DNA of 64,000 nt. It comes from Natrinema longum. Lineage in GTDB: Archaea; Halobacteriota; Halobacteria; Halobacteriales; Natrialbaceae. The notes beneath the pieces were generated by a model. It worked only from the letters and a program-made list of their open reading frames with translations. It searched no databases and was not told where the DNA came from. Location: positions 2,356,001 through 2,420,000 of the forward strand of contig NZ_CP071463.1 in NCBI RefSeq assembly GCF_017352095.1, in the 5' to 3' direction. Positions within the stretch are counted from its first letter, which is position 1, and every line of letters begins with the position of its first letter. The translations under genes and the position numbers were made by a program. This document shows, piece by piece, positions 13,015 through 62,184 of this stretch.

Positions 13015-14304
13015 ATGAACGTCTCCATCGTCGGGAGCGGCTACGTCGGCACGACCGTCGCTGCCTGTCTCGCCGATCTCGGCCACACCGTGACCAACGT
13101 CGAGATCGACGAGGACATCGTCGAGGCGATAAACGCCGGCGAGGCCCCGATCCACGAGTCCGGCCTCGCGGAGCGAATCGCGGCACACGCCGGCACGACG
13201 CTCCGTGCGACGACGAACTACGAGGACGTCCGCGAGACGGACGTCACGTTCCTCTGTTTGCCCACGCCACAGTCCGACGACGGGAGTCTCGACCTCGCGA
13301 TCATGCAGGCTGGCGCGGAATCGCTCGGGCGCGCACTCGCCGAGAAGGACGACGATCACCTCGTGGTCGTCAAGAGCACGGTCCTGCCCGGCACCACCGA
13401 AGACGTCGTCGGTCCGATCCTCGAGGCCGAATCCGGAACCGAGATCGGTGACGGGCTCGAGCTCGCGATGAACCCCGAGTTCCTCCGGATGGGAACCGCA
13501 GTCGAGGACTTCCTCGAGCCGGACAAGGTCGTCTTCGGGACGGCCAGCGACGAGGCCCCCGCGACGCTTCGCGAACTGTACGCGCCGATCCTCGAGCGAG
13601 ACGACACGGACCTCGTCGAGACCGATATCCGCGAGGCGGAACTCATCAAGTACGCGAACAACGCCTTCCTCGCCTCGAAGGTCTCGCTGGTCAACGAGCT
13701 GGGGAATATCGCACGGGAGTACGACGCGGACGCCTACGAGGTGCTCGAGGCGGTCGGGCTCGACGATCGGATCTCCGACCGGTTCATGCGCTCCGGACTG
13801 GGCTGGGGTGGGTCCTGTTTCCCGAAGGACGTCAACGCCTTGCGGGCCGGCGCTCGCGAACAGGGGTACGACCCCGAACTGCTCGATGCGGTCGTCGCGG
13901 TCAACGACGAGCAACCGCGACGGCTCGTCGAGTTGCTCGCGGCCCACGTCGACCTCGAGGGGGCCCGGATCGCGGTGCTGGGTCTGTCGTTCAAGCCCGG
14001 CACCGACGACATCCGCAAGTCGCGCGCACTCGACGTGATCGATCACCTGACGGATCGCGGCGCTGTCGTCGTCGCCTTCGACCCGGTCGCGATCGAGAAC
14101 GTCCGGCCCGACTATCCCGACATCGAGTACGCCGACTCGGCGGCGGGGGCCCTCGAGGGCGCGGACGGGGCCGTCGTTGCGACCGACTGGCCGGCGTTCG
14201 ACGACCTCTCCTTCGAGGGGATGGCCCGCAGCGTCGTCGTCGATGGGCGGCGGATCGACGTCGACGAGGACGCGCTCGAGGTCTACGAGGGACTGACCTG
14301 GTAG
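13015..14304 (+). CDS. aglM: UDP-glucose 6-dehydrogenase AglM
   Basis: 429 residues, matching the family. Oxidises UDP-glucose to UDP-glucuronate with two NAD+, giving the hexuronic acid donors of haloarchaeal N-glycans. Seen: Rossmann motif GSGYVGTTVAACLADLGH (residues 7-24), the STVLPGTT loop, the catalytic Lys/Asn region KYANNAFLASKVSLVNE near 217, the catalytic Cys in GSCFPKDVNAL near 264, and the C-terminal domain with GLSFKPGTDDIRKSRA. It lies between aglF and aglJ. A palindromic element (14306-14381) starts one base after the stop codon. Confidence 0.92.
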   Translation: MNVSIVGSGYVGTTVAACLADLGHTVTNVEIDEDIVEAINAGEAPIHESGLAERIAAHAGTTLRATTNYEDVRETDVTFLCLPTPQSDDGSLDLAIMQAGAESLGRALAEKDDDHLVVVKSTVLPGTTEDVVGPILEAESGTEIGDGLELAMNPEFLRMGTAVEDFLEPDKVVFGTASDEAPATLRELYAPILERDDTDLVETDIREAELIKYANNAFLASKVSLVNELGNIAREYDADAYEVLEAVGLDDRISDRFMRSGLGWGGSCFPKDVNALRAGAREQGYDPELLDAVVAVNDEQPRRLVELLAAHVDLEGARIAVLGLSFKPGTDDIRKSRALDVIDHLTDRGAVVVAFDPVAIENVRPDYPDIEYADSAAGALEGADGAVVATDWPAFDDLSFEGMARSVVVDGRRIDVDEDALEVYEGLTW

Positions 14305-14305
14305 A

Positions 14306-14381
14306 GTCGCAACTGAAACGGTTCATACACTGATCGCAACGCTGTCGTGCGATCAGGTGTACAATGACTTTCAGTGGCGAC
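14306..14381. repeat. Palindromic dispersed element, copy A
   Basis: Terminal inverted repeat GTCGCAACTGAAA (14306-14318) / TTTCAGTGGCGAC (14369-14381), one mismatch. An inner perfect stem CTGATCGCA / TGCGATCAG (14330-14338 / 14348-14356) encloses the loop ACGCTGTCG. By eye it matches about 62 of 70 positions of copy C read on the other strand. It sits directly after the aglM stop, where it could act as a 3' structure. Confidence 0.75.
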
Positions 14382-14478
14382 GATAGTGGTGGCTGATTCG
14401 CGTCGGACCGACTGACCGTAAAAACCCGACACTGCTCAATCAGTAGCCTTTTGCGGTTCGGTAGGGGAGTTGTGTTCG

Positions 14479-17511: not shown

Positions 17512-17625
17512 CCATAAGCGTAAGTAAACGGTCCCTCGATGGCTTCCCGTTGTTTCGGGTCGGTAGGGAAGTGGATCGGTGGGACCGTGCCGGTCCTGAC
17601 GGCGGCCGCTGCTCTCGGAACGACT

Positions 17626-17689
17626 GCAACTGTTACACACTGATCGCACGGCTATCGGGCGAGTCAGGTGTGCGGTGACGCGCAGTGGC
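17626..17689. repeat. Palindromic dispersed element, copy B (degenerate)
   Basis: Starts GCAACTGTTACACACTGATC and ends CAGTGGC, with the inner stem CTGATCGC facing GCGAGTCAG. The order of blocks is as in copies A and C but several bases differ and it is 6 bp shorter. It lies about 105 bp upstream of the VOC gene. Confidence 0.6.
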
Positions 17690-17793
17690 TCCTCTCGTCC
17701 CCTCCCGACCTCGGCACTGATCGGTGGCGGACTACCGCTTTCGCACCGACTGCCGTCCAACAGTATATGCTCCTCCCCCGCGTACGTCCTCGC

Positions 17794-51562: not shown

Positions 51563-51682
51563 ACTTCTACGGTCGGGAACCCTCCGTAAAGATGCTGTGG
51601 CTTGCACCGGAGCTGTGGGGGGGACCGCGTCGGGGGCCAGGCGACGCCAAACTGGCGTGATACGGTCTACTGTCCGTCATCG

Positions 51683-51717
51683 CCGGTGGGACCGAGACCG
51701 CCCTGCGGTCCCACCGG
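51683..51717. repeat. Hairpin with perfect 12-bp arms
   Basis: CCGGTGGGACCG - 11-base loop - CGGTCCCACCGG. It lies between the divergent DUF7545-like gene and the 47-residue gene. Possible transcript structure, mobile-element remnant or protein site; no second copy was found in the window. Confidence 0.6.
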
Positions 51718-51791
51718 TAAATCGGTACAGCAAACCGTATGAGACGTCGGCTCCCGTGGCGTTTTTGCTCGTCGACGACGAACGCTCGACT

Positions 51792-61947: not shown

Positions 61948-62091
61948 AGCCTCGCAAGGGGCCCGCCCGTACTTCAATCGGCGGGATCCGTCGATCTCCG
62001 GCCCCGTTTTCACCGTCGTAACGTATCGGTCTGTCTGCCGGTCCCTGGGCTTTTGCCGGTCGTACTCGGTCGTTCGTACGGGGTGGAAAGC

Positions 62092-62175
62092 TATAGTAGC
62101 AACTGAAAGTCATTGCGTTCCTGATCGCACGACAGCGTTGCGATCAGTGTGTCAATCGTTTCAGTTGCTACTATA
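62092..62175. repeat. Palindromic dispersed element, copy C (longest)
   Basis: Perfect 17-bp terminal inverted repeat TATAGTAGCAACTGAAA (62092-62108) / TTTCAGTTGCTACTATA (62159-62175), with the inner stem CTGATCGCA / TGCGATCAG around the loop CGACAGCGT. Read on the reverse strand it matches copy A. It lies between the divergent birA and the zinc-finger gene, ending 9 bp before the latter's ATG. Confidence 0.85.
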
Positions 62176-62184
62176 ACAAGACCC

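What the first reader, a model, noticed from the sequence alone, without database searches (positions are those of the whole stretch)
14306..14381. Three-copy palindromic element with outer and inner stems (copies A, B, C)
Copies at 14306-14381, 17626-17689 and 62092-62175 (reverse) share the order: outer arm AACTGAAA, inner stem CTGATCGC, conserved loop, inner stem, outer arm. Copies A and C match at about 62 of 70 positions by eye; copy C has perfect 17-bp terminal repeats. Inner stem and loop are better conserved than the flanks of the inner stem. This could be a MITE or an RNA with selected structure. I found no named element for it.
Basis: seen in the sequence. Interest (0 to 1): 0.62.

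Follow-up and report, generated by a model that had tools for sequence, protein, structure and literature searches.

The report
Palindromic mobile repeat of salt-loving archaea
The three repeats are copies of an 80-base hairpin-shaped "hitch-hiker" transposon that lacks its own moving enzyme, inserts at the sequence CTAG, and sits in dozens of copies in many salt-loving archaea, so the structure is real but of an essentially familiar kind.

Summary
Copies A and C are full 86-bp members, copy B a decayed one. The genome carries at least 60 copies. It is a MITE: non-coding, with long terminal inverted repeats, in positions that differ between close relatives. Empty sites show an 80-bp core inserted at TA, usually within CTAG, with a 2-bp TA duplication. 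Its ends resemble those of the ~1055-bp haloarchaeal IS630 elements (ISNpe3/ISNma7 group), which also insert at C^TA^G. It is in 161 of 391 sampled Halobacteria genomes. The inner stem covaries: 10 compensatory pairs in 69 sister comparisons, about 1 expected. But no strand is favoured, gene context is neutral, and the old copy B has lost its fold, which favours a DNA mobile element over a conserved RNA. Open points: this genome has no IS630 transposase above cut-off, so the mobilising enzyme is not identified, and why the palindrome stays symmetrical is unknown. One 2.2-kb block bounded by two copies behaves as a single insertion.

The parts
14301..14386 (+). Copy A, full-length element (86 bp including one flanking base and a TA on each side)
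   Evidence: CM match 1-86, 91.8 bits; site empty in the same-species genome G060
14302..14303 (.). left TA of the target duplication of copy A; it overlaps the TAG stop of the upstream ORF 13015-14304
   Evidence: empty site in G060 reads CTGGTAG; ORF
14384..14385 (.). right TA of the target duplication of copy A
17612..17697 (+). Copy B, diverged and decayed copy
   Evidence: CM match 1-86, 39.2 bits, E 2.7e-7; RNA fold z -0.56
62091..62176 (-). Copy C, full-length element with near-perfect arms
   Evidence: CM match 1-86, 99.8 bits; site empty in G068 and G069
62092..62093 (.). TA of the target duplication of copy C (low-coordinate side)
62174..62175 (.). TA of the target duplication of copy C (high-coordinate side)

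Best explanation
[quoted passage not shown] Its core of 80 bp is almost wholly one imperfect palindrome: an outer stem of 18 pairs (counting the flanking TA and C/G), a middle stem, and a 9-bp inner stem with a 9-nt loop. Shown: it is non-coding, dispersed in many copies, absent at orthologous sites of close relatives, and inserts at TA, typically in CTAG, so that C-TA-G becomes C-TA-[80 bp]-TA-G. Shown: IS630 elements of the same organisms (ISNpe3/ISNma7 group) have the same target and terminal TATAGTA, with partial similarity behind it. Inferred: a transposase of that family recognises the two ends in trans, cuts the element out and pastes it into another CTAG; the enzyme that did this here is a lost or unsampled relative. 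Inferred: the intergenic bias reflects survival of harmless insertions. Inferred: symmetry of the two arms is kept either because both ends must be recognised, or by arm-to-arm copying when the palindrome folds back.
For: Copies: 40 places by BLAST, 49 core matches against 0 for the control, more diverged ones from ends alone; 7 of 16 inspected G060 copies are letter-identical at different sites. Empty sites: in 6 of 9 filled/empty comparisons the 86 bp (2233 bp for the composite block) is replaced by exactly 4 bp (GTAG, ATAG, CTAG, CTAG, CCAG, CCAA); the other three leave 5, 6 and 6 bp. C and G flank the TA pair in 96 of 153 sites, 47 of 63 young ones. IS630 elements: C precedes the left TA in 44 of 51 readable rows (counted by eye; some rows are one element fetched twice); left ends agree at 16 of 27 and right ends at 18 of 27 positions with the IS consensus, and the match beyond the first 8 bases is reached in 0.42% of 100,000 position shuffles. 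ISNma7 sits inside a copy of this element on pNMAG02 as CAAC-TA-[IS]-TA-GTT. Tc1/mariner-type IS630 elements duplicate TA and IS630 prefers CTAG (PMC2170065: abstract, passages and a reference title). 43 of 45 own copies examined were not called intragenic (41 with resolved neighbours, 2 undetermined), while 1298 of 1668 random windows in the same loci are intragenic.
Against: No autonomous element with the exact ends TATAGTAGCAACTGAAA was found. Genomes with well-preserved copies lack the enzyme: DDE_3 and the ORF-A query give 0 hits in G000, G051, G063, G065 and G075; with NF033545 only 1 of 9 genomes passes the cut-off, and G060 has a 63-position fragment. Two of nine empty sites read CA, not TA. 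The end similarity beyond TATAGTAG is modest, and crossed left/right comparisons (16 and 16 of 27) are almost as good.
Confidence: 0.87

Rival explanations
1. A structured RNA (regulatory mRNA element or small RNA) spread through the genome and kept for its fold.
For: Strong predicted fold (z -8 to -9 for intact copies). Covariation above shuffles: inner stem 23 compensatory cells against 2.5 expected (max 7 in 500 shuffles), outer 92 against 34 (max 48). In 69 disjoint sister pairs inner 10 against about 1, outer 13 against 5.4; slid registers give 2-6 against 25. One compensatory difference (pair 8-79) separates two same-site copies, L010 and L493.
Against: G-T and A-C one-sided mismatches are about equal (74:65; inner stem 19:13), so no strand is favoured. 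Gene context is 21 tandem, 11 convergent, 9 divergent against 161, 78, 65 random; orientation 11:10. One-sided changes outnumber compensatory ones 322 to 25. Sites are not conserved between close relatives. No Rfam match at the element in three loci.
Confidence: 0.07
2. For the symmetry only, not for the identity of the element: the palindrome is kept symmetrical by DNA mechanics alone. Template switching between the arms during replication corrects one arm from the other, with no function for the fold.
For: Both strands are equivalent (74:65). IS630 elements, whose ends lie 1 kb apart, show only weak matching of left and right variants (14 against 6.8 expected, max of shuffles 17), while the 80-bp element shows it strongly. 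At the L008 site the G060 copy lies in the opposite orientation between the same flanks (L494).
Against: The unpaired bases between outer and middle stem stay as they are (positions 19, 20, 66, 67, 68 agree with the consensus at 0.85-1.00), which blanket correction would erase unless they are needed for end recognition. The orientation flip may be an independent second insertion, since CTAG sites are few (17 in 64 kb).
Confidence: 0.4
3. A REP-like or PATE-like element mobilised by a Y1 (IS200/IS605-type) transposase through single-stranded hairpins.
For: Hairpin shape, intergenic location, and such elements are common in Haloquadratum (PATEs, PMC3119063 passages).
Against: PATEs have no terminal inverted repeats and cause no target duplication (same passages); this element has both.
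Confidence: 0.02

Closest known systems
ISNpe3 / ISNma7 group of IS630-family insertion sequences (haloarchaea)
   Same: Terminal TATAGTA, insertion at C^TA^G with TA duplication, partial similarity of both ends over 27 bp.
   Different: About 1055 bp with two transposase frames (HTH domains, DDE_3); positions 9-17 differ; no inner palindrome.
MITE families of Haloquadratum walsbyi (PMC3119063, passages read)
   Same: Short repeats with inverted ends related to a transposon, target duplication, mobility even where no functional transposase was found.
   Different: Five families in a different genus; the paper's text has 0 occurrences of IS630 and I could not compare sequences.
ERIC, Correia and RUP elements of bacteria (partly PMC10969869 passages; TA duplication and the RUP-IS630 link are recalled)
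   Same: Small palindromic or TIR-bearing, mostly intergenic elements moved in trans.
   Different: Unrelated hosts; no match of this element in 20,395 E. coli records.

Membership tests
MITE (non-autonomous DNA transposon) | Short, non-coding, multi-copy, terminal inverted repeats | tested here: met
   86 bp, 18-bp arms, at least 60 places
MITE (non-autonomous DNA transposon) | Insertion polymorphism with target duplication | tested here: met
   9 filled/empty comparisons, 6 exact for a 2-bp duplication
MITE (non-autonomous DNA transposon) | Ends shared with an autonomous transposon | tested here: inconclusive
   First 7-8 bases shared with IS630 elements, then partial similarity; no element with the exact ends found
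MITE (non-autonomous DNA transposon) | Mobilised in trans by a transposase | not testable with these tools
   needs an experiment; own genome lacks a candidate above cut-off
IS630/Tc1-mariner superfamily | TA target duplicated, CTAG preference | tested here: met
   preference of IS630 from PMC2170065
IS630/Tc1-mariner superfamily | Encodes a DDE transposase | tested here: not met
   the core is 80 bp, so it is a non-autonomous relative, not an IS630 element
PATE / IS200-IS605 derivative | No terminal inverted repeats, no target duplication | tested here: not met
   has both; definition from PMC3119063 passages
REP element with RAYT transposase | Dedicated RAYT-type Y1 transposase gene in the genome | not tested
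   no search for Y1 transposases was made
Structured RNA family | Match to a known RNA family | tested here: not met
   cmscan of L001, L006 and L009 against Rfam 15, no match at the element
Structured RNA family | Covariation supporting the fold | tested here: met
   but the same is expected of a self-correcting DNA palindrome
Structured RNA family | Excess of G-U over A-C changes on one strand | tested here: not met
   G-T 74, A-C 65

The most novel reading that the evidence does not exclude
A transposon whose hairpin is actively kept symmetrical after insertion: the two arms correct each other in place (or are selected together), flipping and co-mutating within a species, and its spread no longer depends on any IS630 transposase of its host but on an unknown, possibly host-encoded, enzyme acting on CTAG.
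Probability: 0.12. Interest if true: 0.7.

Novelty: new member of a known kind. Interest (0 to 1): 0.42.

Why it matters
It explains a very common repeat of haloarchaeal genomes (161 of 391 genomes sampled) and gives its ends, target and duplication, so that gene and RNA annotation, strain typing and rearrangement studies can use it. It raises a testable question: what moved it so recently in genomes that hold no IS630 transposase. It also offers a natural, many-copy test of how palindromes in DNA keep their arms alike.

Tried and rejected
Autonomous partner: scanning the loci fetched by then for convergent ends 200-4000 bp apart gave 9 pairs, all of which include at least one complete short copy; L085, L119 and L129 were read for ORFs and showed no transposon with these ends. 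A viral-contig scan with a 15-base end gave 120 stretches that I treated as chance and left out of all counts (L217-L336). The phage collection had no match. Tandem pairs in G075 were dropped as evidence: an N lies at or next to each junction, so they look like assembly joins. The G060 transposase fragment has no recognisable ends. Alignment A3 mixes both strands and was not used for counts.

Dropped rows: the covariation counts use ungapped copies only (at least 58 of 86 letters as the consensus, 56 of 86), so copies with indels are missing. One search covers 45 own copies of at least 60, with home-made gene calls. Relatedness inflates the shuffled comparisons; the sister-pair count is the safer one. 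Matches per genome are capped at 35 and at 11.

Papers: PMC3119063, PMC10969869, PMC3402447, PMC5867850 and PMC2170065 were seen as passages. Searches for a printed description of this element; none of the listings showed one, but most subscription journals are not held and ISfinder is not on hand.

Full report
OBSERVATION. The window lies in a 3.59-Mb single-contig genome. All 42 stretches returned for an exact 30-base core in the named genome collection are Natrinema, and the same-species genome G060 has two contigs of the same lengths as Natrinema ejinorense JCM 13890. Copies A, B and C are at 14301-14386 (+), 17612-17697 (+) and 62091-62176 (-). Counting the union by eye gives at least 60.

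ANATOMY. The consensus is 86 bp including one flanking base and a TA on each side: C-TA-[80 bp]-TA-G. The outer 18 positions pair perfectly in intact copies, followed by a middle stem, a bulged A, a 9-bp inner stem and a 9-nt loop. The two halves are not identical: after the shared 18 bases they read CGATTTACAC and, from the other side, GTCATTGCAC.

EMPTY SITES. At copy A the same-species genome G060 has both flanks (identity 98-99%) and four bases, GTAG, in place of the 86. The TA overlaps the TAG stop codon of the upstream ORF, and the insertion re-creates the stop. At copy C the more distant G068 and G069 are empty, with 6 bases left in diverged flanks. Of the 14 own copies whose joined flanks I searched in G060, 5 single sites are empty (L004, L009, L012, L014, L025), 2 copies (L006 and L007) bound one empty site together, 2 are filled (L008, L010), 1 is rearranged (L018) and 4 could not be resolved (L002, L013, L015, L022). 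Of nine filled/empty comparisons, six leave exactly 4 bases, the result expected for a 2-bp duplication; one leaves 5 and two leave 6. Of the six exact ones four read GTAG, ATAG, CTAG and CTAG; two read CCAG and CCAA, against a TA target. Across 153 distinct sites C and G flank the TA pair in 96, and in 47 of 63 young ones.

RELATION TO IS630. Elements with the DDE_3 domain in the genus (18 of 29 genomes) and family (ORF-A query, 84 of 125 genomes) are mostly 1059 bp counting both TA, start and end with TATAGTA or close to it, and stand behind a C in 44 of 51 readable rows (counted by eye). The transposase is IS630 by NF033545 and has HTH and DDE_3 domains in Pfam; annotated members are ISNpe3 and ISNma7. 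The element's left end agrees with the IS left consensus at 16 of 27 positions and its right end with the IS right consensus at 18 of 27; crossed comparisons give 16 and 16. Beyond the first 8 bases the combined match is reached by 0.42% of shuffles. This is supportive rather than overwhelming. On pNMAG02 an ISNma7 copy lies inside a copy of the element with TA on both sides, which shows the target of the IS directly. IS630 and its relatives are known to duplicate TA, and IS630 to prefer CTAG (PMC2170065: abstract, passages and a reference title).

DISTRIBUTION. The model finds the element in 104 of 125 genomes of the family (E at most 1e-3) and in 161 of 391 sampled genomes of the class (E at most 1e-5, 41 of 86 genera, five families by my reading). 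On plasmids it is in 50 of 72,556 records, with Natrinema, Haloarcula and Natronorubrum the commonest names; a haloarchaeon TuA4 megaplasmid has the exact consensus. There was no match in 50,697 phage records or 20,395 E. coli records.

THE MISSING ENZYME. The own genome, G051, G063, G065 and G075, which hold some of the best-preserved copies, have no DDE_3 or ORF-A match. With the IS630 equivalog model only 1 of 9 searched genomes passes the cut-off; G060, with 7 letter-identical copies among 16 inspected, has one short fragment without recognisable ends. So trans-mobilisation by an IS630 enzyme is inferred from ends and target, not shown. A similar puzzle was noted for a Haloquadratum MITE (PMC3119063 passages).

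COVARIATION. Changes on both arms exceed shuffles. In 69 disjoint closest pairs there are 25 compensatory changes against 7.6 expected under independence and 2-6 in slid registers; the inner stem has 10 against about 1. One-sided changes still dominate (322). G-T and A-C mismatches are about equal (74:65), so no strand is favoured. IS630 ends, 1 kb apart, show much weaker matching (14 against 6.8, maximum of shuffles 17). Same-site copies L010/L493 differ by a compensatory pair, and L008/L494 lie in opposite orientation between the same flanks. Both facts fit arm-to-arm copying in a folded palindrome, but independent insertion into the same rare CTAG cannot be excluded (17 CTAG in 64 kb). CTAG is also scarce in Haloferax chromosomes and a CTAG methyltransferase is common in Halobacteria (PMC5867850 passages).

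CONTEXT. Of 45 own copies examined 2 are intragenic, while 1298 of 1668 random windows in the same loci are; the rest (21 tandem, 11 convergent, 9 divergent, 2 undetermined) are distributed like random intergenic windows (161, 78, 65, 66 undetermined). Orientation relative to tandem neighbours is 11 same, 10 opposite (my tally of those rows). This is what tolerated insertions would look like, and it speaks against a terminator, promoter or leader role.

CONSEQUENCES. Copies L007 and L006, two direct near-identical copies 2.1 kb apart, and the block between them are absent together from G060, where only CTAG stands. The simplest reading is a composite insertion using the outermost ends. The block holds ORFs of 106, 285 and 154 aa without Pfam match, the two larger ones also without NCBIfam match. 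At the L018 site the two flanks in G060 lie about 7 kb apart beside two oppositely oriented copies, the left flank inverted, which fits recombination between copies.

VERDICT. A real, abundant IS630-type MITE for which I found no printed description in the searches named; ordinary in kind, with two open questions: the enzyme and the symmetry.

Noticed in passing
window 51658-51742 (-): A second palindromic repeat family of similar size, ends TGATACGGTCTACTGT / TCATACGGTTTGCTGT, inner ACCGGTGGGACCG...CGGTCCCACCGG; at least 40 places in the genome. Probably another MITE.
   Followed up: partly
L402 (G000:C1:2062450-2065650): A copy of that second family sits inside the left arm of a copy of the element studied here.
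   Followed up: partly
L437 (G000:C1:2782700-2785400): Two direct copies flank about 2.1 kb with ORFs of no known family; the whole block is missing at one CTAG in G060.
   Followed up: partly
L491 and L492: Rearrangement between G000 and G060 with element copies at the breakpoints, left flank inverted.
   Followed up: partly
L471 (pNMAG02 of Natrialba magadii): ISNma7 inserted within a copy of the element, TA on both sides.
   Followed up: yes
L008 site versus L494: Element in opposite orientation between the same flanks in two strains: in-place flip or second insertion.
   Followed up: no
G075 C5:50920-51091, C48:137695-137865, C49:27970-28144: Apparent head-to-tail pairs of copies with an N at or next to the junction, probably assembly joins at identical repeats.
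   Followed up: partly
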